From: Bacteroidales bacterium
GTDB lineage: Bacteria > Bacteroidota > Bacteroidia > Bacteroidales > Bacteroidaceae
Direction: 5' to 3'
Assembly (NCBI GenBank): GCA_012517855.1
Contig: JAAYUD010000067.1
Coordinates: 1 to 64,000 of the forward strand
Length of the DNA: 64,000 nucleotides
The position numbers and the translations under genes are program-made. Below, piece after piece: positions 7,538 to 64,000 of this stretch (its first letter is position 1; every line of letters starts with the position of its first letter). The notes beneath the pieces are model-generated. The model was given only the letters and a program-made list of their open reading frames with translations. It was not told the DNA's origin and ran no database searches.

Positions 7538-9781
7538 ATGGAAAAAAGAATAATATTATTGTTTATCTCGTTTTCTTTCGTTATATCCGTCTTTTCCCAG
7601 GTCCATACGAAAAAAATGAATTATTTCGTCTCTTCTTTGATGAGTCGGATGACTTTGGAAGAAAAAATTGGTCAAACGATATTGAGTGGTGGAAATATTC
7701 CCGGATATAACGGAGAAATGCTCGATTTGGACGGTTCTATCCGTGCTGGGCTATTGGGAACAACTTCCGTAGGTTATAATTATGATATGGCTGTGCATGT
7801 TCAAAAATTGGCTTGCGAGGAATCTCGATTGAAGATTCCTTTGCTCATTGGCCTGGATGTGATCCATGGTTATCAGACAATATTTCCTATACCGTTGGCA
7901 AGTTCTTGTAGCTGGAATATGCCGCTTATTGAGCAGAGTGCTCGCATAGCTGCAGATGAAGCGACTGCTTTTGGGGTGAACTGGACATGGTCGCCAATGG
8001 TTGATATTTGTCGAGACTGTCGTTGGGGGCGTATTGCCGAAGGTGGGGGCGAGGATCCTTATCTTGGGGGGCAGATAGCTGCTGCTATGGTTCGTGGCTA
8101 TCAAGGCAACAACTTGGCGGCTGGTAATACGTTATTGGCATGTGTTAAACACTTTGCTCTATATGGAGCTGCCTAAGGTGGACGCGATTACAATACAGCC
8201 GATATGAGCAAAGTGAGCATGTACAATTATTATCTCCCTCCGTATAAAAGTGCGATCGATGCAGGTGTTGCTACTGTGATGTCTTCTTTTAATGTTGTCG
8301 ACGGTGTGCCCGCTACTGGTAATCGGTGGCTGCTTACAGATTTACTTCGTAATCAATGGAAATTTAAAGGTTTCGTGGTGTCGGATGCTAATTCGATAAA
8401 CGAAATGGTTAATCATGGTATGGGCGATGGGCAAACGGTAGCTGAACTGGCGATAAAAGCTGGTTTGGATATGGATTTGGGTGGTGGAGCTTATGTGTCT
8501 TCTTTAAAGAATGCATTGAAAGAAGGTCACATCACGATGGAGAATATTGATACGGCTTGTCGCCGTGTGTTGGAGGCAAAATACAAACTTGGATTGTTTG
8601 ACGATCCTTATAAATATATTAATAATAAGGCTCGTCAGGCTGATGTATTGTCTCCTTCCCATTTGAAAGCTGCACGCGATTTGGCCGACGAATCAATTGT
8701 ACTTTTGAAAAATAGTGATAATTTGCTGCCTTTGAAGCCTCAAGGTAAAATTGCAGTTGTCGGACCGTTGGGCAATAATCGTAAGCAACTTATTGGAACT
8801 TGGGCAAACAGTGATTTCGATAAGCCTGCCCGTAGTGTATATGAAGCTATAAAAGAATATGTTGGCGATAAAGCACAGGTTGTTTATTCGCAAGGAAGTA
8901 ATTATACCGAGGAACAATGCCTGTACGATGGCAACTATTCTATTCCAACCGATTCACTCATCGAAGAAGCTGTAAAAGTGGCGTCTGATGCAAATGTTAT
9001 TATTGCTGCGGTCGGTGAACCTGCATCGTGGAGTGGTGAAGCTCGCTCAAAATCGAATCCTTCGTTGCCTGAATGTCAGAAACGCTTACTCAAAGCACTG
9101 CATTCTATAGGCAAGCCCGTTGTTGTAGTGCTTTTGAGTGGTCGTCCTTTGATATTGTCTGAAGAGGATCATTGTTTTTCTACTTTAGTTGAAGCTTGGC
9201 ATGGTGGAACAATGGCTGGAGTAGCTTTGAGTGATATGCTTTTCGGAGTAATTAATCCTTCGGGAAAGCTGACAACTACTTTTCCTCGGAATATAGGCCA
9301 AATTCCTATATATTATAACTCCTTGAATACTGGACGCCCTCTTTCCGATTTTTGGGCGACATCCAAGTATATTGATTGCGATAATACTCCGCTGTATCCT
9401 TTCGGATACGGTTTAAGTTATACTACCTATCAATATGGAAAATTGTCTCTTAGCAAAAAGCAACTAAAGGGTAATAAAGATAGCCTGGAGATTAGTGTAC
9501 CGATAACAAACATCGGCAATTGTGATGGTAAAGAGATCGTTCAGTTATATGTCGGCGATCCGGTTGCCAGCATTTCTCGTCCAGTAAAAGAATTGAAGAA
9601 TTTCCAGAAAGTATTTTTGAAACAGGGAGAGACAAAGATTGTTTCATTTACCATTACTTCTGATAATTTGAAGTTCTACAATAGTGAGTTGAAATCTGTT
9701 GTGGAAAAGGGAATTTTCAATATATCTATTGGTCCTAATTCTCGAGATTTGCAGACGGTGAAAATATCGTATAATGATTAA
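7538..9781 (+). pseudogene. GH3 beta-glucosidase-like gene interrupted by a single in-frame TAA (8174-8176)
   Basis: ORFs 7538..8176 and 8204..9781 share a frame. ...VKHFALYGAA*GGRDYNTADMSKVSMYNYYLPPYKSAIDAG aligns without gap to the intact paralog at 31558-33798 (IKHYVAYGAAEAGRDYNTTDMSERTLREVYLPPFKAAVKAG). Confidence 0.9.
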
Positions 9782-53066: not shown

Positions 53067-56000
53067 ATGAGAAATTTTGCAATCACATTGTTTTCCATCC
53101 TGTTTTTATTATCACCGTTGAGCGAGGCGAAAACAGGTACAAAACAAATCGGCAACGAAGTAACAGAATTGGCAGGCAACAAAATCGTCAGTTGCCGGAA
53201 GACCAATCCGACAACCGTAGAGGTTGTCTTTTCAGATAATCGATGCATCACCTTCGACTTTTACGGCGATAATATCTTCCGTGTGTTTCAAGACAATGCC
53301 GGCGGTGCCATGCGAGAGCCTGAAGCCAAACCTTATGCTCGGATACTAACGGACAACCCGCGAAGAGATGTTTCCGGCTTGTCGGTTCGCAACGATAATG
53401 AAAATGTTTATATCGAAACGGCGCGGGTGCTTGTAGCCATAAACAAGGAATCGCTTTGTATGAAGATAACCGATCGCAAAACGTCGGTTGTCGTGTTGGA
53501 ACAAGTAGTACCCGTCTCTTTCGAAAAAGATAGAGTGACTGTGACACTCAAAGAGAATCCGAACGAATATTTCTATGGCGGAGGGGTGCAAAACGGACGT
53601 TTCTCTCATAAAGGAAAAGTCATTGCCATTGAAAATCAAAATAGCTGGACCGACGGAGGAGTAGCTTCTCCCGCGCCTCTCTTCTGGTCGACCGGCGGAT
53701 ATGGCATGTTGTGCTATACTTTCAAGAAGGGCAAATACGATTTCGGCGCTTCCGAAAAGGGTAAAGTCAAAATCATGCACGATACGTCTTATCTGGACGC
53801 TTTTATTATGATAGACAATAGTCCCGTTTCTATCTTGAACGATTATTATCAGCTCACCGGCAAGCCCGTGCTGCTACCCGAGTTTGCTTTTTACGAAGGA
53901 CACCTCAATGCTTACAATCGGGATTATTGGAAAGAAAGCAAAGAGGGTATCTTGTTCGAAGACGGCAAGTGCTACAAAGAGAGTCAGAAGGATAATGGCG
54001 GAATCAAGGAATCGCTCAATGGCGAGAAAAACAATTATCTCTTTTCTGCCAGAGCCGTCATCGATCGATATAAGAAATACGATATGCCGTTGGGATGGAT
54101 TCTTCCCAACGATGGATATGGTGCCGGATATGGCCAAACGAATACGCTCGACGGGAATATTGAAAATCTTAAGGCATTTGGCGATTACGCCCGCCAAAAC
54201 GGTGTGCAGATAGGACTGTGGACGCAATCGGACTTACACCCTAAAGCCGGAGTGAGCGCACTGTTGCAAAGAGACATCGTGAAAGAAGTGCGAGATGCCG
54301 GGGTCAGGGTGCTCAAAACCGATGTGGCATGGGTAGGCGAGGGGTACTCTTTCGGATTGAACGGCGTTTCCGATGTTGCTCATATTATGCCCGGTTATGG
54401 AAACAATGCACGTCCGTTTATTATCACACTCGACGGATGGGCGGGGACGCAACGATATGCAGGGGTATGGACGGGAGACCAGACCGGCGGTGAATGGGAA
54501 TATATTCGTTTTCATATTCCCACCTATATCGGTGCCGGGCTATCGGGCATGCCCAACATTACTTCGGACATGGACGGCATCTTTGGCGGTCGAAACTTAC
54601 TCGTCAACGTTCGCGATTTCCAATGGAAAACATTTACTCCCATGCAGCTCAATATGGACGGCTGGGGAGCTAACGAGAAATATCCGCAGGCCTTGGGCGA
54701 ACCCGCCACTTCGATTAATAGGTGGTATCTCAAGCTCAAGTCGCAACTGATACCTTATACATACAGCGTTGCCAAAGAAGCGACGGACGGTATGCCGCTC
54801 ATTCGCGCTATGCTGTTGGAGGCGCCCAACGATTATACGTGCGGCACTGCTACGCAATATCAATTTATGTACGGTCCCTCTTTCTTGATTGCTCCCATTT
54901 ATCAGCAGACCAAATGCGACTTGCAAGGACACGACATACGTAATGGTATCTATCTGCCCTCGGGCAATTGGATCGATTATTTCACGGGAGAGAAATACAA
55001 GGGCAATCGTATTATCAACAGCTTCGACGCTCCCCTGTGGAAACTTCCTGTCTTTGTTAAGGCTGGGGCTATTATTCCGATGGCAAATCCCAATAACAAT
55101 GTTTCCCAAATCGATCAAAGGCGACGCATATACGAGATATACCCCGAAGGTAAAAGTGTTTTTACCGAATATCACGACGACGGCACCACCGAAGCCTATC
55201 TATCGGGCAAGAGCACGACGACTCTTATCGAATCGAATGTGGCGGGCCGTGTGGCAACCATTACCGTACATCCTACCAAGGGGACTTTCGACGGTTTCGT
55301 AAAGGTCAAGGCTACGGAATTCAGAATAAATGTGACGGCCAAGCCCCAATCGGTACAGGCTAAAATAGGCAACAAGACCGTCTTGCTGAAAGAAGTGAAG
55401 TCGATGAATAGTCTTTCCGGCGGACAGAATGTTTGTTTCTATGATGCCTCGCCTCGTTTTGAGACTTTTGCTACCAAGGGGAGTGCATTGGCAAAGACTG
55501 TCATCGCCAAAAATCCTTTGCTGTATGTCAAGTTGGCTCCTTCTGATATTACTTCTGCTGCCATTACTCTTACTATAAAAGGGTATCAGTTTTCACCGAA
55601 AAGCTCGTCTTTGCTATCTACCGGCAAACTGACTGCTCCCGCACAGTTCCATGTGACCGAGCCACACCGACAGGCTTATGCTCTGACTCCTTCGTGGAGC
55701 AAAGTTACGGGGGCCGATTATTACGAAATCAGTTACAATGGCAATATTTATACCAACATTAAAGATACCTGTATGCTGTTCGACGGACTCACTACTCAAA
55801 CAACCTACGCATTCAAGTTGCGAGCGGTCAACAAAAGCGGCGTTTCCGCTTGGGCGGAAACGAAGGCGACAACCAAATCCGATCCGCTCGAGTTTGCCAT
55901 TCAAAACATACACGGTGATGCCTCTGCTCCAAGTCAAGAAGGATTCGAACTCTATCATTTGTTCGATTTCTCCGATACCGGTGACATTTGGCATACCAAA

Positions 56001-56927
56001 TATCACGAAAACGCTCTTCCTTACAACCTGACGATCGACCTTCGAAGCATCGACGTGCTCGACCGATTCGAATATTTGCCACGCAAGGACGGAGGAAACG
56101 GAACCATCCTAAAGGGCACGGTATCTTACAGTCTCGACAAAAAGGAATGGACCAAAGCGGAGCCATTCGATTGGAAACGAAATGGCGACACCAAAGTATT
56201 CTCTTTCACCGATCACCCCAAGGCTCGTTATATCAAGCTATCCGTCACCGAAGGGGTAGGAAGCTATGGCTCCGGTCGCGAGCTCTATGTGTTCAAAATG
56301 CCGCATACTGCAAGTTATATTCCCGGCGATATAAACAACGATGGCAAGATAGACAACAACGACCTCGTTTCGTATACCAACTATACCGGATTGCGTAAGG
56401 GCGATCCCGATTTCGACGGATATATAAGCAATGGCGACATCAACAAAAACGGGCTGATCGACGCTTACGATATTTCCAATGTCGCTACTGCGCTCGAGGG
56501 AGGAATAAAAGAAGAATGCGATTCTTTGCAGAAGCTCTCCGGCAATATCGTTTTAGTCGACTCGGTTGCAAAAGAATATGCCAAAGACGACATTATAAGC
56601 ATAACGGTGAAGGGCACAAACTTGAAAGCGGTCAATGCCTTCAGCTTTGCGCTGTCATACGATCAAAACGACCTTGAGTATATGGGTACGCAACCGATCC
56701 ATGCTAAAGAAATGGAGAATCTGACTTACGATCGTCTTCATAAAACGGGCGGAAAAGTGCTCTATCCTACCTTCGTCAATATCGGAGAGAAAGAAACGCT
56801 TAGTGGCGATCTCGATTTGTGCGTTATTAGATTTAAGGCCAAACATCATCTGAAAGTCAACTTGAAGCCTGCGAATATAATATTGGTAGATAAATATCTG
56901 AATGATATTACAACCTCGGCTGAATGA
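53067..56927 (+). CDS. GH31 glycosidase with F5/8C-like domain and C-terminal dockerin-like and cohesin-like segments
   Basis: GH31 motifs GVRVLKTDVAWVGEGY and GVWTGDQTGGEWEYIRF; DUF5110-like; FnIII-like; F5/8C-like ALPYNLTIDLRSIDVLDRFEYLPRKDGGNGTILKGTVSYSLD; dockerin-like GDINNDGKIDNNDL...GDINKNGLIDAYDI; cohesin-like C-terminus. Confidence 0.9.
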   Translation: MRNFAITLFSILFLLSPLSEAKTGTKQIGNEVTELAGNKIVSCRKTNPTTVEVVFSDNRCITFDFYGDNIFRVFQDNAGGAMREPEAKPYARILTDNPRRDVSGLSVRNDNENVYIETARVLVAINKESLCMKITDRKTSVVVLEQVVPVSFEKDRVTVTLKENPNEYFYGGGVQNGRFSHKGKVIAIENQNSWTDGGVASPAPLFWSTGGYGMLCYTFKKGKYDFGASEKGKVKIMHDTSYLDAFIMIDNSPVSILNDYYQLTGKPVLLPEFAFYEGHLNAYNRDYWKESKEGILFEDGKCYKESQKDNGGIKESLNGEKNNYLFSARAVIDRYKKYDMPLGWILPNDGYGAGYGQTNTLDGNIENLKAFGDYARQNGVQIGLWTQSDLHPKAGVSALLQRDIVKEVRDAGVRVLKTDVAWVGEGYSFGLNGVSDVAHIMPGYGNNARPFIITLDGWAGTQRYAGVWTGDQTGGEWEYIRFHIPTYIGAGLSGMPNITSDMDGIFGGRNLLVNVRDFQWKTFTPMQLNMDGWGANEKYPQALGEPATSINRWYLKLKSQLIPYTYSVAKEATDGMPLIRAMLLEAPNDYTCGTATQYQFMYGPSFLIAPIYQQTKCDLQGHDIRNGIYLPSGNWIDYFTGEKYKGNRIINSFDAPLWKLPVFVKAGAIIPMANPNNNVSQIDQRRRIYEIYPEGKSVFTEYHDDGTTEAYLSGKSTTTLIESNVAGRVATITVHPTKGTFDGFVKVKATEFRINVTAKPQSVQAKIGNKTVLLKEVKSMNSLSGGQNVCFYDASPRFETFATKGSALAKTVIAKNPLLYVKLAPSDITSAAITLTIKGYQFSPKSSSLLSTGKLTAPAQFHVTEPHRQAYALTPSWSKVTGADYYEISYNGNIYTNIKDTCMLFDGLTTQTTYAFKLRAVNKSGVSAWAETKATTKSDPLEFAIQNIHGDASAPSQEGFELYHLFDFSDTGDIWHTKYHENALPYNLTIDLRSIDVLDRFEYLPRKDGGNGTILKGTVSYSLDKKEWTKAEPFDWKRNGDTKVFSFTDHPKARYIKLSVTEGVGSYGSGRELYVFKMPHTASYIPGDINNDGKIDNNDLVSYTNYTGLRKGDPDFDGYISNGDINKNGLIDAYDISNVATALEGGIKEECDSLQKLSGNIVLVDSVAKEYAKDDIISITVKGTNLKAVNAFSFALSYDQNDLEYMGTQPIHAKEMENLTYDRLHKTGGKVLYPTFVNIGEKETLSGDLDLCVIRFKAKHHLKVNLKPANIILVDKYLNDITTSAE

Positions 56928-57033: not shown

Positions 57034-57489
57034 TTATTTGTGGAGACAGAATCTTTTTGTTTCCGAAACTATTTTCACTCTCGGAAGTCCGTTTACTGCA
57101 TTTAGCGCTTTTATATCTTCGTCCGTTGCCTTTCTGAAGTTCTTGAACTTGGCAACGTACCCCATTACGGTAAGCGAGCGTGGACCATAAGGTTTTTTCG
57201 AATAGATATATTCGGGATCTACCAGCACATCTCCTGATTGCTCTTTTAGAAGCTCTGCAACTAAATTCTCTTTCCTGTCGGACAACGTATATTTCTCGGG
57301 GAAGAGGCTCCAATTCCATGTAATGCTTTTCTCTACTTTTGTCGTATTGATGTCAAGATCCGCTACTGTCGGATATTGCTCCACATGTGTTGTTATGGCT
57401 GATACAGAAGAAGTACATGCTATTTTAGTAGAACAAGAACTAAATAACATAGCTCCCAATAGGCATACGAATAAACTGATTTTCTTCAT
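57034..57489 (-). CDS. Small lipoprotein (tandem paralog of 57498-57872)
   Basis: Lipobox LFSSCST; SGDVLVDPEYIYSKKPYGPRSLTVMGYVAKFKNFRKAT resembles DADVLVAPQYATSIKRHRVRKIVVTGYPATYKNFTKVT. Confidence 0.8.
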   Translation of the reverse strand: MKKISLFVCLLGAMLFSSCSTKIACTSSVSAITTHVEQYPTVADLDINTTKVEKSITWNWSLFPEKYTLSDRKENLVAELLKEQSGDVLVDPEYIYSKKPYGPRSLTVMGYVAKFKNFRKATDEDIKALNAVNGLPRVKIVSETKRFCLHK

Positions 57490-57497
57490 AATATTTA

Positions 57498-57872
57498 TTA
57501 TTTACAGGTTGAACATGGTGTTACTTTTGTGAAATTCTTATAGGTGGCAGGGTAGCCTGTAACGACTATCTTTCTAACTCTATGCCGTTTAATGGATGTG
57601 GCATATTGTGGCGCTACCAATACGTCTGCATCTCCATTCTCCTTTAATGCTAATGCTACAGCTTTTTCGTGCACTCTTTTATAACCAAGTTTTGCATCTT
57701 TCTTAGGGACTATCATAGTATAAGAAATTTTGGATGAAGAAACAATTAAATCTGCTTCATTGTAGCTTTTTATACCGGTTGCAATGCCAAGACTTGTTGC
57801 TGTCTGGCTGACATAAGTGGAACATGAACATAAGCCTGCTCCGAATAATAACGTAATAAGTAGCTTTTTCAT
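57498..57872 (-). CDS. Small lipoprotein (tandem paralog of 57034-57489)
   Basis: Lipobox GLCSCST; shared C-terminal motif as above. Confidence 0.8.
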   Translation of the reverse strand: MKKLLITLLFGAGLCSCSTYVSQTATSLGIATGIKSYNEADLIVSSSKISYTMIVPKKDAKLGYKRVHEKAVALALKENGDADVLVAPQYATSIKRHRVRKIVVTGYPATYKNFTKVTPCSTCK

Positions 57873-58355: not shown

Positions 58356-60461
58356 ATGGAGGCAAAGAAAACGACCATACAGTTCATTAAAGAAGCTGCG
58401 AACAAACTGAAAGATTGTAAGATAAAGAGGCTTACAGCCCCTCATACCCAATCAGTAATAGAGGGAGTTATGAAAGGCGTAGGCTTGAAGAATATTCGTC
58501 AGACCATGCTTTTTGTTCCGATGTTTGACAATTCATGCAGGTGCAGAAATACAGATTTGGATGATATCGCAAACTATCTTGATTGCTCAACATTAGATAT
58601 TGTAGACTATGTTCCCGAACTGAATGATATGATGAAAAGTGGATTCATTCGCACTACAGAAAGAGAATGTATTGACTTAATGCGCCAAAGTTACGCAATC
58701 AATGAAGATGTCTTATCTGCGATTATTGAAGGAAAGGTTGTCTCGCCTAGTCCGAATCAACAGGATTCATGTTTTGATAAATATGACTTCTGTAAAATGG
58801 TAAGCAATTTGGTCGAGAATCGAGAGGTTACTCTAAAATCGGTAATTGCTTATGTAAATAAGAAGGAATCCGAGTGCGAGTATCTCAAATTCATCAAAGA
58901 CGTTTGCTTAGTAGTTCCGAATGTAGAAGATAGAATTCTATTCTATGAAATGTGCAATGATTATCTTGGTTCAGAAAGTCGTGGCAATGGAGAAACTGAC
59001 ATCAATTCAACCATGGCTGACATTTATGAGCACACTAACAAACGAATCGCTTGTAAGAAGACTCTTCTCAATGACTCCCATCCTTTGATTATTGCCGACT
59101 TGATTATGAATAAGAATGCAGAACATAAAGAATTGATCCTTACAGAGAAAGGAAAGCGCCTGTTTTTTGATGACGATATCGTATCATTTTCAAAATCCTA
59201 TTTCAACCTTGATAGATATTCTTTTACTCAAACTATCTACGATTATATTCGAAGTGACAACTTTGATAAAGATAATAATCGTGCAGATATCCGGTTGCAA
59301 TGCAAGGTTGTGGAAATCGAACAAGCGAATCCTCAATTGCAGTTCATATCGAATGTTTCAAAACTTATTTCGGAAACAGATGACAGGATTCTATTTTATA
59401 TGGTATGCCAGAAATGCATAAAGGGTGAAACTTTAGATTTGGTTCACTATCTTGACGTAAGATATAGGGCAAGGACGTGCAATGAAAAAATGAAGTTGTT
59501 CAAGAGCGGAAATCATATTCTATTAAAAACAAATCTTGTTGAACTAAACAAAGAATCAGGGTTCTTTGGAGATACCACTTATCTTAAATGTACAAGCAAG
59601 GGCAAAGACCTGTTTTTTGAAGAGGATGCACAAATCTACCAAGAAGAGGAGGACACAAAAGGTCTTCTAATATCTTCTGATATCAAGGAAAAGCACTTAT
59701 TTTTCAGTAGTGAACTAAGTGGTCAACTTTCAATGGTACAAGAGAGCCTACAAGACGAGTCTTATCAACGACTGAAAGAACGTCTTCAAACGAAAGCGTT
59801 ACCGAAAGGAATTGCCGTCTTGATGTATGGACTACCCGGCACAGGTAAGACAGAAAGCGTTTTGCAAATAGCACGAGCAACAGGCCGCAATATCATGAAG
59901 GTTGATATTAGTGCGACCAAATCTGCATGGTTCGGAGAGAGCGAAAAAATCATCAAAAAGGTATTCACCGATTATGGATACTTATGTGAAAAGAGCTCCT
60001 TAACACCAATTTTACTTTTTAATGAGGCGGATGCCATATTTTCAAAACGCAAGGATGTAGCCAGTGGAAATGTGGCACAAACAGAAAATGCCATCCAGAA
60101 TATCCTTTTGGAAGAAATAGAGAAACTGGAGGGTATCCTCATTGCAACAACTAATTTGGCTGATAATTTTGATGCTGCTTTTGAACGGCGTTTCTTGTTC
60201 AAGATCAGATTTGATAAGCCAACATTGGAAGCCAAACAAAACATCTGGATGGATAAGATACCGTTTCTTTTGCCTGATGCTGCAAAAGAACTTGCTCGTA
60301 ACTATGATTTTAGCGGTGGCGAGATAGAAAACATTGTTCGTAAAGCAATGATGCGCGAAGTAATTGCAGGTGAATCGCCCACTATTGCGGTTCTTCATGA
60401 ATACTGTAGAGAAGAAAAAATAGCAAAGAATGACCATCATCCTCGCATTGGCTTCAAATAG
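58356..60461 (+). CDS. AAA+ ATPase with repeated N-terminal wHTH-like domains
   Basis: Walker A MYGLPGTGKTES, Walker B-like PILLFNEADAIF, sensor IATTNLADNFDAAFERRF. N-terminal repeats aa ~173-274 and ~324-424 (DRILFYxxC...LTEKGKRLFFDDD / CTSKGKDLFFEED). Confidence 0.9.
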   Translation: MEAKKTTIQFIKEAANKLKDCKIKRLTAPHTQSVIEGVMKGVGLKNIRQTMLFVPMFDNSCRCRNTDLDDIANYLDCSTLDIVDYVPELNDMMKSGFIRTTERECIDLMRQSYAINEDVLSAIIEGKVVSPSPNQQDSCFDKYDFCKMVSNLVENREVTLKSVIAYVNKKESECEYLKFIKDVCLVVPNVEDRILFYEMCNDYLGSESRGNGETDINSTMADIYEHTNKRIACKKTLLNDSHPLIIADLIMNKNAEHKELILTEKGKRLFFDDDIVSFSKSYFNLDRYSFTQTIYDYIRSDNFDKDNNRADIRLQCKVVEIEQANPQLQFISNVSKLISETDDRILFYMVCQKCIKGETLDLVHYLDVRYRARTCNEKMKLFKSGNHILLKTNLVELNKESGFFGDTTYLKCTSKGKDLFFEEDAQIYQEEEDTKGLLISSDIKEKHLFFSSELSGQLSMVQESLQDESYQRLKERLQTKALPKGIAVLMYGLPGTGKTESVLQIARATGRNIMKVDISATKSAWFGESEKIIKKVFTDYGYLCEKSSLTPILLFNEADAIFSKRKDVASGNVAQTENAIQNILLEEIEKLEGILIATTNLADNFDAAFERRFLFKIRFDKPTLEAKQNIWMDKIPFLLPDAAKELARNYDFSGGEIENIVRKAMMREVIAGESPTIAVLHEYCREEKIAKNDHHPRIGFK

Positions 60462-60836
60462 TTGGTCCATTTCTTGAAATATATCGGAATCAGTGCTGCG
60501 GTTTGGCATACCCTTGAACCTATCTTTGCATCGGAAGTTGATTCCCGGAGATACCGAAGCCCGTTAGACGGAGGTAAGTATAATCATAAAAATAGTTTTA
60601 TGCCTATAATGATTAATCGCGGTAAAGAGTTGATTCGTATTTGTTCGAGCAACACCGCAAGGTTAGAGTATTCGACAAATGGCGGTCGCAGTTGGGTCCT
60701 ACGTTTTAGTGGTAATCCAAGCATTGGTCAATTTAGCGACCTAACGGATAATGGTAAAGAAATCCTTGGTACGACCAACAAAGGATTGTGTTACTCAACA
60801 AACGATGGGCGAAGCTGGATTTTGCGTAAGCGATAA
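60462..60836 (+). CDS. Small protein with two Asp-box (BNR-like) repeats
   Basis: LEYSTNGGRSWVLRF and LCYSTNDGRSWILRK. TTG start directly abuts the upstream stop; ATG at 60600 is an alternative. Confidence 0.65.
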   Translation: MVHFLKYIGISAAVWHTLEPIFASEVDSRRYRSPLDGGKYNHKNSFMPIMINRGKELIRICSSNTARLEYSTNGGRSWVLRFSGNPSIGQFSDLTDNGKEILGTTNKGLCYSTNDGRSWILRKR

Positions 60837-60848
60837 ACTAAAACGAAG

Positions 60849-61280
60849 ATGAGAAATAGATTTTATACTCATCCTTCAGATGATATCATTGTGGATGTTG
60901 ATCAGATGTACAACATCCATGATGGTATTGTCTCAGTAGGAGTTGAAGAGGTTCACATGGTTGTTTCTGGTGCCGAAAACGTTATCGTATTGACAGGAAA
61001 AGGAACTGGTAGCAATAGAATAAGCAATGCTATTGAAGACGCAGTCTTACATACTTGCAAGGTAGCAACCGGTTATAATCTTTTTTCGGCTGATAAAGCG
61101 ATCATCAAGTTGATATACCCCCAAAATAATCCATTGATGCTTAGTGAAATAGAAAACATCATTCAGTTTGCTGAAATGTTTACTGGTATTGCCTCTTTTA
61201 TATGGGGAATCAGTGAAAGAGAATCTGAATCTTCTGATGTGATTGCTCAGATTATTGCATCTAATCTTAAAGACAGCTAG
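60849..61280 (+). CDS. Stand-alone FtsZ C-terminal-domain-like protein
   Basis: LTGKGTGSNRISNAIEDAVLH...ADKAIIKLIYPQNNPLMLSEIENIIQFAEMFTGIASFIWGISERESESSDVIAQIIASNL follows the FtsZ C-terminal pattern; the N-terminal GTP-binding domain is absent. Confidence 0.7.
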   Translation: MRNRFYTHPSDDIIVDVDQMYNIHDGIVSVGVEEVHMVVSGAENVIVLTGKGTGSNRISNAIEDAVLHTCKVATGYNLFSADKAIIKLIYPQNNPLMLSEIENIIQFAEMFTGIASFIWGISERESESSDVIAQIIASNLKDS

Positions 61281-61418
61281 GTTCATAAACTAATTAATTC
61301 AGGCTAGATAGTCGCTATAGCTGTGGAAGTTTAATGTGAAATTCTTTAAAAAAAACGGTGTTATTCAATATGTTTTTACGGAAATCAATAAAATAAGAGC
61401 TTCATGATGAATATTTTG

Positions 61419-61460
61419 CTACCCAATGTAATTATTTTACATAAATTATGGGTAGTTTTG
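61419..61460. promoter_or_regulatory. Interrupted palindrome overlapping a TAGTTTTG -7-like element upstream of the WYL gene
   Basis: CTACCCA (61419-61425) / TGGGTAG (61449-61455), inner GTAA/TTAC; TAGTTTTG at 61453-61460. Confidence 0.55.
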
Positions 61461-61493
61461 TAACTAAATTAGTAACCTTTAAAAGCATTTACT

Positions 61494-62453
61494 GTGGCAT
61501 CAAATATCTTCGGACGTTATATTTGGCTGATTGATATTCTCAGGCGACAAAAACGTCTGACCTTTGAAGAAATCAATAGCCTTTGGATTGATAGTGGTCT
61601 TAGTTATGGAGAGGGTGATGATCTTCCATTGCGAACCTTTCATAATCATCGCAAAGTGATAAAGGATATGTTTGATGTCTATATAGAATGCGATATCAAA
61701 AGCGGTTATAAGTACTACATCAGTGAGCCAGAAAGACTTGAAGGAGATAGCCTTCGTAGTTGGTTGATTGATTCTTATGCCACGCTGAACCAAATTCAAG
61801 CGGACAAAAAGTTAGAAGGAAGAATCATCTTTGAGAATGTTCCTTCTGGCAATATTTGGCTGACTACTTTCACCCAAGCTATGCGCAATAGCCATGTAGT
61901 AGAAATTACTCATCGTGGCTTTGGCAAATCTGATGAAAAGACTTTCGAAATAGAGCCCTATTACCTTCGCATCTTCAAACAGAGATGGTATGTTGTTGGA
62001 AGAAATCCATACTATGCTTGGAAAAAGAAGAAGGCCGAAAAAGAAGGTAAAACCTACGATAATCCAATCTATCGGGTTTATGGGCTTGACCGTATTTCAA
62101 AAGTGACAGTTACTGACAAGACTTTTGAAATGAAGCCGGATTTTTCTATCGAGGACTATTATGATGGATGCTGTGGTATCATTCCAGATACAGAGGTTGA
62201 TAAAGAGCATGTGGTAATCCGGGCTTATTGGAAAGCATCCGACTATCTTCGTACACTTCCCTTGCATCTTTCTCAAAAAGAATTGAGTAGTGATGATGAA
62301 TCCACACTCTTTTCTTATGACGTGCGCCCAACTTTTGATTTTTATCAAATATTATTAGCGCAAGGCGATCAAATAGAGGTCGTGGAGCCTGAATCTGTCC
62401 GTAATGAAATGAGACGGTTTGCAGAAAACCTGTTGTCTTACTACAAAAAATAA
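61494..62453 (+). CDS. WYL-domain transcriptional regulator
   Basis: N-terminal wHTH, WYL-type segment (IFKQRWYVVGRNP...YRVYGLDRISKVTVTDKTF) and WCX-like C-terminus; GTG start. Confidence 0.92.
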   Translation: MASNIFGRYIWLIDILRRQKRLTFEEINSLWIDSGLSYGEGDDLPLRTFHNHRKVIKDMFDVYIECDIKSGYKYYISEPERLEGDSLRSWLIDSYATLNQIQADKKLEGRIIFENVPSGNIWLTTFTQAMRNSHVVEITHRGFGKSDEKTFEIEPYYLRIFKQRWYVVGRNPYYAWKKKKAEKEGKTYDNPIYRVYGLDRISKVTVTDKTFEMKPDFSIEDYYDGCCGIIPDTEVDKEHVVIRAYWKASDYLRTLPLHLSQKELSSDDESTLFSYDVRPTFDFYQILLAQGDQIEVVEPESVRNEMRRFAENLLSYYKK

Positions 62454-62458
62454 GAATC

Positions 62459-63010
62459 ATGAACAATATAAACTTCATCGCTATTGATTTTGAAACAGCT
62501 ACACCAAAGCGAGCTTCTATCTGTGAAGCTGGTATTTGTGTTGTAAAGGCTGGCACAATTGTGGAAACTAAATCGTGGTTAGTCCGGCCAGAGGATAACC
62601 TATACAGTTATTGGAACATAAAGATTCATGGCATTCAACCAGAACAAACCGAAAATGCTCCCTCCTTTCCTGAAGTATGGAAAGAGATTGAAGCATACTT
62701 GGATGAATGTCCTGTTTTAGTAGCGCACAATGCAGCTTTTGATATGAGCTGCATTCGCCATTCGTTAGAGCTGTATGGGTTGGAAAAGAGCGAAATAATA
62801 TATTATTGCTCGCTTCTTGCTGCTCGTAATATTTACGATTCACCCTGCAACAGTCTTGATTATTTATGTGACCAGTTTGAGATACCCGAAGGTACGCATC
62901 ACAGAGCTGGTGATGATGCAGAAATGTGTGCACGTCTTTTTCTTAAAGAAATCAATGATGCAGGTTGCTGTGAATTAGAAGAAATGAATTATTGTAACGG
63001 AAAACTATAA
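62459..63010 (+). CDS. DnaQ-like DEDDh 3'-5' exonuclease
   Basis: FIAIDFETATPKRASICEAGICVV, LVAHNAAFDMSCIRHSL, HHRAGDDAEMCARLFL. Confidence 0.93.
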   Translation: MNNINFIAIDFETATPKRASICEAGICVVKAGTIVETKSWLVRPEDNLYSYWNIKIHGIQPEQTENAPSFPEVWKEIEAYLDECPVLVAHNAAFDMSCIRHSLELYGLEKSEIIYYCSLLAARNIYDSPCNSLDYLCDQFEIPEGTHHRAGDDAEMCARLFLKEINDAGCCELEEMNYCNGKL

Positions 63011-63020
63011 TACTTTAACT

Positions 63021-64000
63021 ATGAGAAAAGATATGAAATCTATATCAGAGCTTAAAGATAATATATTTGTTATTCCTACTCATCAAAGAGGTTATAGATG
63101 GAGAAATGACAATGTTGAAGCTTTGCTAAATGATATAAAAGAATTTATTGAAGAAAAGAAGCCTTCTATAAACCAAAAACGAGTCTATTGTTTGCAGCCT
63201 CTTGCTGTAACAGAAATAACACCTAACAAATATAATGTTGAGGATGGGCAGCAGAGATTAACTACCTTATTTCTTTTGCATAAGTACCTCTTTAAAAACA
63301 ATAATGATTTCTACTCATTCGATTTTGAGAGCGATATAAAAGGAATCAGAAAGTCGTATTTGACTGATGAAATAGACAACACAAACTACAAAGATCAAAG
63401 TGATATAAACTTATATCATATCGGTTGGGCTTACACATCGATAAAGGAGTGGTTTGTTAATGGTCTCGGCAAAGGATGCGAAGAGGAATTCAAAACATTA
63501 TTGAATGCAGATTCAAAACATGACTCAATACAATTTATATGGTATGTGGTAGACAAAGGTAAAGCTAGGGAGGTATTTAGAGACCTTAACTATGGAAAAA
63601 TAAGATTGACGGGAACAGACCTAATTAAGGCATTATTATTGTCTAAAGATAATGGTTTAGCCGAAGAGGACAGAGCTGTAATAGGTCAACAACTGGAGGA
63701 CATGCAAGTAATGATGGAAAACGATAGATTTTGGTTTATGTACCAACATAGTGACCCTATCTATCATACAGATAGAATGGACTTCCTTTTCAACTTGACC
63801 GAGAATGTTAGCGAGGATGATTATCATCATTTCCCATATCTGGCTTTTTCTAAATTTAATAAAGCGCAGAAGGAAAATAAATTACTAGAAGAGTGGGGTA
63901 AGGTTCGCACACTATATATTATACTAAACGACTTATACGAGAATCCTTACTATTATCATTATATTGGCTATCTAGTAAATAGAACAAAAAATTTTACTCT
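63021..64000 (+). CDS. DUF262 (GmrS/ParB-like) protein, 3' truncated by window edge
   Basis: Open frame from ATG 63021 to the window end, absent from the ORF track for lack of a stop; VIPTHQRGYRWRNDNVEALLNDI, YNVEDGQQRLTTLFLLHKYL. Confidence 0.9.
   Translation, partial: MRKDMKSISELKDNIFVIPTHQRGYRWRNDNVEALLNDIKEFIEEKKPSINQKRVYCLQPLAVTEITPNKYNVEDGQQRLTTLFLLHKYLFKNNNDFYSFDFESDIKGIRKSYLTDEIDNTNYKDQSDINLYHIGWAYTSIKEWFVNGLGKGCEEEFKTLLNADSKHDSIQFIWYVVDKGKAREVFRDLNYGKIRLTGTDLIKALLLSKDNGLAEEDRAVIGQQLEDMQVMMENDRFWFMYQHSDPIYHTDRMDFLFNLTENVSEDDYHHFPYLAFSKFNKAQKENKLLEEWGKVRTLYIILNDLYENPYYYHYIGYLVNRTKNFT

What the first reader, a model, noticed from the sequence alone, without database searches (positions are those of the whole stretch)
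58356..64000. Compact accessory cluster: AAA+ ATPase, Asp-box protein, FtsZ-CTD-like protein, WYL regulator, DEDDh exonuclease, DUF262: candidate undescribed defence-type system
Seen: six co-directional genes in two tight units (58356-61280 with gaps of 0 and 12 bp; 61494-63010 and onward with gaps of 5 and 10 bp). Known: WYL regulators, DEDDh exonucleases and DUF262 (DGQQR, GmrSD-related) proteins are recurrent in defence islands. Inference: the first unit (AAA+, Asp-box, FtsZ-like) does not match a named system I recognise and may be a distinct module.
Basis: partly seen in the sequence, partly recalled or inferred. Interest (0 to 1): 0.8.

Follow-up and report, generated by a model that had tools for sequence, protein, structure and literature searches.

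The report
Defence island with stand-alone FtsZ domain
This is a mobile gene cluster of the anti-virus type in a gut-type (Bacteroidales) bacterium, and it pairs a tiny, fast-varying Asp-box protein with a cut-off piece of the cell-division protein FtsZ; the pair recurs in at least eight genomes and looks like an undescribed defence module, though no function has been tested.

Summary
The genes are real. One start is wrong: the Asp-box gene begins at ATG 60600 (78 aa), not 60462, so it is not fused to the AAA+ gene. The cluster continues past 64000 with a complete GmrS+GmrD (DUF262/HNH) gene and a second DUF262 gene.

The gene order is conserved. AAA+ – Asp-box – FtsZ-CTD – WYL – DEDDh – DUF262 recurs in two other contigs (L146, L149, near-identical to each other), and partial versions occur across Bacteroidota, once on a plasmid. 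AAA+ travels mainly with WYL/DUF262. The Asp-box + FtsZ-CTD pair is a separate cassette that also occurs alone.

The third protein is truly a stand-alone FtsZ C-terminal domain (PDB fold match 5e-9; profile 4e-8), under purifying selection, with 8 members and one remnant. The Asp-box mini-protein also precedes ion channels, Mrr and PD-(D/E)XK nucleases, AAA+ and DUF262 pairs. Its two Asp-boxes share hypervariable residues.

Best reading: a WYL-controlled composite anti-phage island in which the Asp-box protein is a recognition part and FtsZ-CTD acts through FtsZ's synergy-loop face, which phage T7 Gp0.4 is reported to bind. Defence is inferred, not shown.

The parts
58356..60461 (+). AAA+ ATPase, 701 aa: fast-diverging N-terminal ~440 aa and a Cdc48/IetA-type AAA+ domain (Walker A GLPGTGKT, Walker B ILLFNEAD, Arg finger AFERR)
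   Evidence: PF00004 E 2.9e-22; identity to L146/L066/L160 homologs 33-37% in the N-terminal part and 64-69% in the AAA+ part
60600..60836 (+). Mini Asp-box (BNR) protein, 78 aa, two Asp-boxes; predicted two-blade beta-propeller fragment; candidate recognition component
   Evidence: 29-row alignment; pLDDT 91.5; Ycf48, IceA2, weak; coupled hypervariable residues
60849..61280 (+). Stand-alone FtsZ C-terminal domain (end of helix H7, synergy/T7-loop region, CTD), 143 aa, no GTPase domain; candidate effector or decoy
   Evidence: pLDDT 85.6; Foldseek PDB FtsZ E 5.4e-9; HMM E 4.2e-8
61453..61460 (+). Bacteroidota-type -7 box (TAGTTTTG; consensus TAnnTTTG from general knowledge) in a stretch upstream of WYL that is partly conserved in L128, L133, L146
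   Evidence: promoter inferred from sequence only
61494..62453 (+). WYL + WCX transcriptional regulator, 319 aa
   Evidence: WYL E 1.4e-10, WCX E 7e-12; 52-61% identical copies in L128, L133, L146, L149, L152
62459..63010 (+). DEDDh 3'-5' exonuclease, 183 aa, catalytic D-x-E, D and H-x4-D present
   Evidence: 60-78% identical copies behind WYL in L128, L133, L146, L149, L152
63021..64000 (+). DUF262a: fused GmrS (DGQQR) + GmrD-type HNH protein, 581 aa, runs to 64766; followed after 5 bp by DUF262b (849 aa, to 67321, outside the window)
   Evidence: GmrSD_N E 3.6e-25, weak GmrSD_C E 1.3e-3; DUF262b GmrSD_N E 4.3e-21

Best explanation
The region is a horizontally acquired, WYL-controlled composite anti-phage island built of exchangeable cassettes: (1) an AAA+ remodelling ATPase; (2) a two-gene cassette of the mini Asp-box protein and a stand-alone FtsZ C-terminal domain; (3) WYL - DEDDh exonuclease - GmrSD-type DUF262 pair, a nuclease module. 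Shown: gene content, conserved order, tight spacing of the genes, fold of FtsZ-CTD, purifying selection, shared hypervariable residues of the Asp-box protein. Inferred: the WYL protein keeps the downstream genes off until infection. The Asp-box protein (probably a ring-forming propeller fragment) recognises an infection-related ligand. FtsZ-CTD is the output of its cassette: it carries the synergy-loop face of FtsZ without a GTPase domain, so it would dock on the nucleotide pocket of cellular FtsZ and cap filaments, stopping division in infected cells. The DUF262/DEDDh nucleases act on phage DNA.
For: Co-location: AAA-BNR-FtsZC-WYL-DEDDh-DUF262 in L146 and L149; BNR-FtsZC-WYL-DEDDh-DUF262ab in L133; DEDDh-DUF262-DUF262-AAA-BNR-WYL on a Chryseobacterium plasmid, next to a LeoA-type dynamin gene. 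WYL-, DEDDh-, DUF262-, AAA-, PD-DExK- or Mrr-like genes lie within 8 kb of the Asp-box gene in 30 of 46 loci and 0 of 20 control stretches. Unbiased search: stand-alone FtsZ-CTD in 2 of 393 Bacteroidales genomes, both directly behind the Asp-box gene; Asp-box stop to FtsZ-CTD start 1-12 bp in six loci (coordinates). FtsZ-CTD: fold and profile match; dN/dS 0.06-0.10 between L146/L149 and L147/L150; the two synergy-loop Asp kept in 6 of 8, the Asn lost in 8 of 8. Effector-slot reading: the same Asp-box protein precedes Ion_trans channels, Mrr_cat and PDDEXK_4 nucleases, DUF262 pairs. Recognition reading: the residue after the Asp-box Trp is the most variable site of the protein, yet its two copies are identical within a protein in 20/29 cases vs 3.1 expected, codons not matched.
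Against: No phage-challenge or interaction data exist. The window's own FtsZ-CTD has lost both synergy-loop Asp (G and E), so capping may not hold for this copy. FtsZ-CTD is rare, and six of its eight members were found through the Asp-box search, so adjacency in those is not independent. L146 and L149 are near-identical (Asp-box 99%) and count as one event. Part of the Asp-box coupling is a general property of Asp-box repeats: large Asp-box proteins also exceed shuffles (74/247 vs 45.5). No copy in phages or viral contigs. WYL operator not identified. The DUF262 pair may act alone.
Confidence: 0.45

Rival explanations
1. FtsZ-CTD is a decoy or bait: it displays the synergy-loop face of FtsZ that phage inhibitors target. 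A phage FtsZ inhibitor binding it triggers, or is soaked up by, the Asp-box/AAA+ part. The same face serves as sensor, not as toxin.
For: T7 Gp0.4 is reported (AlphaFold3 model plus mutants) to bind the C-terminal region and synergy loop of FtsZ, and the Gp0.4-FtsZ complex activates CapRel-Ebc (PMC13423816). FtsZ-CTD is that region alone. Strong divergence (29-42% identity to the window copy) would fit an arms race.
Against: The cassette slot behind the Asp-box gene elsewhere holds nucleases and channels, which look like outputs. The window copy is not specially similar to its own FtsZ (24.5 bits, against up to 40.9 bits for other genomes' FtsZ). Gp0.4 is known from phage T7; no such inhibitor was identified here for Bacteroidales phages.
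Confidence: 0.25
2. The Asp-box protein and FtsZ-CTD form a toxin-antitoxin-like pair that maintains the island: FtsZ-CTD poisons division and the Asp-box protein neutralises it.
For: Two small genes, 1-12 bp apart in six loci, also alone in L136 and L147. A division-directed toxin is known (CbtA acts on FtsZ and MreB, PMC5624674, listed).
Against: The same Asp-box family precedes unrelated large genes (DUF262 pairs, channels, AAA+), and its most variable residues change between L152 and L153 although their channel genes are 86% identical, which does not suit a dedicated antidote.
Confidence: 0.15
3. Ordinary defence island: only the WYL-DEDDh-GmrSD module defends; the AAA+, Asp-box and FtsZ-CTD genes are hitch-hiking cargo.
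For: WYL-DEDDh-DUF262 occurs with and without the other genes; GmrSD is an established type IV restriction family (PMC4619093).
Against: Conserved order, tight spacing and purifying selection of the FtsZ-CTD gene; repeated AAA/Asp-box adjacency in different branches of the phylum, down to 3 bp on a plasmid.
Confidence: 0.15

Closest known systems
GmrSD / DUF262 type IV restriction
   Same: DUF262a has GmrS DGQQR and GmrD-type HNH motifs fused, as in most GmrSD; DUF262b has a GmrS domain (family features from PMC4619093)
   Different: Here a DUF262 pair behind WYL and a DEDDh exonuclease; the second protein has a ~630-aa C-terminal part with no recognised domain and no GmrD motif
IetAS (AAA+ ATPase IetA plus subtilisin-like protease)
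   Same: AAA+ domain is closest to IetA among PADLOC models (E 5e-24)
   Different: 701 aa with an unrelated N-terminal half, 75.7 bits against the NCBIfam cut-off of 510, and no protease gene recognised in the cluster
FtsZ
   Same: C-terminal domain fold, synergy-loop region, helix H8 G-x-G-x-x-R motif
   Different: No GTPase domain, synergy-loop Asn lost in all members, SPLL motif replaced by HTCxIAKDY-like sequence
CapRel-Ebc sensing of Gp0.4-FtsZ
   Same: Links FtsZ's synergy-loop face to phage sensing (PMC13423816)
   Different: Uses the host's own FtsZ and a fused toxin-antitoxin; here a dedicated FtsZ domain is encoded in the island
WYL-controlled defence loci (BrxR, CapW; from general knowledge)
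   Same: WYL/WCX regulator heads a nuclease operon
   Different: Not BREX or CBASS; no PglX, BrxC or cyclase genes seen in the cluster
Small Asp-box / propeller-fragment proteins (IceA2, Ycf48 blades)
   Same: Weak fold match (Foldseek E 0.03 and 0.007)
   Different: No detectable sequence relation to IceA2 (absent); here 76-79 aa in defence loci

Membership tests
GmrSD type IV restriction (DUF262a) | GmrS domain with DGQQR | tested here: met
   GmrSD_N E 3.6e-25; DGQQR at residue 75
GmrSD type IV restriction (DUF262a) | GmrD/HNH domain with (D/E)H, GNLxLL and NxxFxxKK motifs | tested here: met
   EHI at 417, GNLVLL at 498, NALYPKKR at 513; Pfam GmrSD_C only E 1.3e-3, below its cut-off
GmrSD type IV restriction (DUF262a) | cleavage of modified DNA | not testable with these tools
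   needs biochemistry
IetAS | IetA model above curated cut-off | tested here: not met
   75.7 bits against 510
IetAS | adjacent subtilisin-like protease IetS | tested here: not met
   no protease-family match among the genes of the cluster or the scanned neighbours
FtsZ (as a division GTPase) | N-terminal GTPase domain with tubulin signature | tested here: not met
   143 aa, aligned only to FtsZ residues ~203-317
FtsZ C-terminal domain superfamily | fold and profile similarity | tested here: met
WYL regulator | WYL and WCX domains | tested here: met
   both above curated cut-offs
WYL regulator | binds its own promoter and represses | not tested
   only a partly conserved upstream stretch seen
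Anti-phage defence system (any named system) | match of the whole gene set to a PADLOC or NCBIfam system | tested here: not met
   only single-gene similarities: IetA, WYL, DEDDh, PDC-S48, HEC-06, Orf5, SspE; PADLOC library dated 2023
Anti-phage defence system (any named system) | protection against phage | not testable with these tools
   needs plaque assays

The most novel reading that the evidence does not exclude
A new class of bacterial immunity in which a hypervariable, ring-forming mini Asp-box protein is a shared recognition module that plugs into many outputs (channels, nucleases, GmrSD, AAA+), one of which is a dedicated FtsZ C-terminal domain that works through the division machinery: either division arrest by filament capping, or bait for phage FtsZ inhibitors.
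Probability: 0.3. Interest if true: 0.9.

Novelty: new variant of a known kind. Interest (0 to 1): 0.66.

Why it matters
FtsZ has only recently been tied to phage sensing (CapRel-Ebc with T7 Gp0.4, PMC13423816). A defence island that carries the very domain targeted by a phage FtsZ inhibitor would make it testable whether bacteria use division proteins as bait or as weapons. The small Asp-box protein with shared hypervariable residues would be a simple recognition part reused by many effectors, and a marker for finding further unknown defence genes in Bacteroidota and Spirochaetota.

Tried and rejected
(1) Asp-box start at 60462: rejected by end-to-end homolog comparison. (2) First look with longest-ORF calling suggested FtsZ-CTD in only two genomes and an Asp-box gene often without it; six-frame blastp showed five more copies hidden by the ORF caller, and one more behind a 170-aa gene. 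(3) Phage origin: no FtsZ-CTD or Asp-box match in phage records or viral contigs; on plasmids one Asp-box match, no FtsZ-CTD. (4) Gene conversion as cause of the matched Asp-box residues: codons match no more often than chance at +1 (9/20 vs 9.1), so rejected there, with a weak codon excess at -1 and -5. (5) General repeat homogenisation: the control shows it exists in large Asp-box proteins but is weaker; kept as a partial explanation. (6) More Asp-box mini-proteins across the phylum: apart from the window's own, only large propeller proteins turned up. (7) IceA2 relation: fold hint only, no sequence support. (9) The alignment of WYL upstream regions included one mis-set short row (L149) and is only suggestive.
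Full report
Setting. The window is the first 64 kb of a 164.8-kb contig (C16) of a 3.64-Mb genome of the Bacteroidales type. The region from 58356 to the window-equivalent of 67321 has 33-40% GC against 44-50% in the preceding GH31 gene. It is flanked by a GH31/dockerin/cohesin gene and two small genes on the minus strand upstream, and by glycan-utilisation genes downstream (by my reading of the sequences). It looks inserted.

Observation. All six genes exist and are co-directional. The AAA+, WYL, DEDDh and DUF262 assignments hold. The Asp-box ORF was called 46 codons too long: its homolog in genome G183 is 78 aa and aligns from the first to the last residue with the window protein starting at ATG 60600; 28 relatives align with this start. 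The AAA+ to Asp-box gap is therefore 138 bp, and Asp-box to FtsZ-like 12 bp. Past 64000 the DUF262 gene completes to 581 aa with fused GmrS and GmrD-type motifs, and a second, 849-aa DUF262 gene follows after 5 bp.

FtsZ-like protein. Pfam finds nothing, but a six-frame search hits the C-terminal domain of ordinary FtsZ in about a hundred genomes. AlphaFold2 with a 24-row alignment gives pLDDT 85.6, and the 50 best Foldseek matches in the PDB are all FtsZ (best E 5.4e-9, TM 0.61-0.74). A profile of eight stand-alone members finds PDB FtsZ at 4.2e-8, residues ~203-317, i.e. synergy loop to end of the CTD. Members: window, L133, L146, L147, L149, L150, L136 (= G183), L129. L128 holds a 28-aa remnant between Asp-box and WYL. 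dN/dS between L146/L149 and L147/L150 is 0.06-0.10. The synergy-loop Asn is lost in all eight, both Asp are kept in six; the window copy has Gly and Glu.

Neighbourhood. A genome-wide scan for the Asp-box protein gave 36 loci in Bacteroidota and Spirochaetota, plus one MAG labelled Bifidobacterium that may be misbinned. The AAA-BNR-FtsZC-WYL-DEDDh-DUF262 order of the window recurs in L146 and L149, which are nearly identical and should count once. BNR-FtsZC-WYL-DEDDh-DUF262ab occurs in L133; BNR-FtsZC alone in L147 and L136. A Chryseobacterium plasmid carries DEDDh-DUF262-DUF262-AAA-BNR-WYL-GTPase-LeoA. Counting 46 Asp-box loci, 30 have a WYL, DEDDh, DUF262, AAA, PD-DExK or Mrr-type gene within 8 kb, against 0 of 20 control stretches from five single-contig genomes of the order. 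The control is small and several loci are near-duplicates, so this indicates strong enrichment, not an exact rate. In an unbiased search of 393 genomes, stand-alone FtsZ-CTD occurred in two, both directly behind an Asp-box gene.

AAA+ gene. Relatives occur in dozens of Bacteroidales genomes. In the 20 neighbourhoods read, 19 hold an AAA relative; about half of them have a WYL gene in the same stretch and three have DUF262 pairs; none has the Asp-box gene. The N-terminal 440 aa diverge much faster (33-37% identity) than the AAA+ domain (64-69%).

Asp-box protein. It is predicted as a compact two-blade propeller fragment (pLDDT 91.5). Fold hits are weak (Ycf48, E 0.007; H. pylori IceA2, E 0.03). 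Next-gene partners include Ion_trans channels (L152; L123/L124), Mrr_cat (L137, L142), PDDEXK_4 (L154, weak), AAA+, DUF262 pairs and several unknowns. The residue after each Asp-box Trp is the most variable site of the protein (3.1 bits), yet the two copies agree within a protein in 20 of 29 cases (3.1 expected) and in 10 of 16 non-redundant ones (2.1 expected). Codons agree no more than chance at that site. In the close pair L152/L153 both boxes changed together (V,T to T,H) while the channel stayed 86% identical. Large Asp-box proteins show a milder version (74/247 vs 45.5), so part of this is generic.

Mechanism. The simplest account is a composite defence island under WYL control with a GmrSD/DEDDh nuclease module and an Asp-box/FtsZ-CTD cassette. 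That FtsZ-CTD acts through the synergy-loop face is inferred from what is retained, and from the report that T7 Gp0.4 binds this face and is sensed as a Gp0.4-FtsZ complex by CapRel-Ebc (PMC13423816). Whether it is a cap (effector) or a bait (decoy) cannot be decided here. The slot behind the Asp-box gene holding nucleases and channels elsewhere favours effector; I put effector somewhat ahead.

Known or new. No named system matched in PADLOC (2023) or NCBIfam, only single genes. Full-text searches found no paper on Asp-box proteins or FtsZ domains in defence islands; the library lacks most subscription journals. I class the island as a new variant of a known kind, and the Asp-box/FtsZ-CTD cassette as the part that could be categorically new.

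Noticed in passing
window 53067-56927: GH31 family protein with fn3, F5/8 type C, dockerin type I and a weak cohesin match in one 1286-aa chain, an unusual combination for Bacteroidales.
   Followed up: no
window 57034-57872 (-): Two adjacent small proteins with lipoprotein-like signal sequences, apparently related to each other, no clear family, between the GH31 gene and the island.
   Followed up: no
L152 8001-9160, L153 1513-2662, L123 4255-6345 (-): Mini Asp-box gene next to an Ion_trans channel gene in Porphyromonas and in other Bacteroidales; a candidate two-gene channel module.
   Followed up: partly
L215 (Chryseobacterium balustinum plasmid NZ_CP033935.1): DEDDh-DUF262-DUF262-split AAA-Asp-box-WYL followed by a GTPase gene and a LeoA-type dynamin-like GTPase gene.
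   Followed up: no
L128 2357-2535: Remnant of the FtsZ-CTD gene (28 aa, 54% identity) between Asp-box and WYL, showing loss of the gene from an otherwise similar locus.
   Followed up: yes
L122 1145-5593 (-): 1482-aa Strawberry-notch-type helicase between Asp-box and WYL; L146 carries only an N-terminal fragment of what looks like the same family.
   Followed up: no
G000:C40:1352-1463: 107-bp stretch 76% identical to the start of the DUF262a gene on another contig of the same genome, suggesting a second DUF262 locus.
   Followed up: no
L135 and L136 around 8001-8237: Identical Asp-box protein and closely related upstream genes in two MAGs, but FtsZ-CTD present in only one; the gene behind Asp-box is swapped or lost.
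   Followed up: partly
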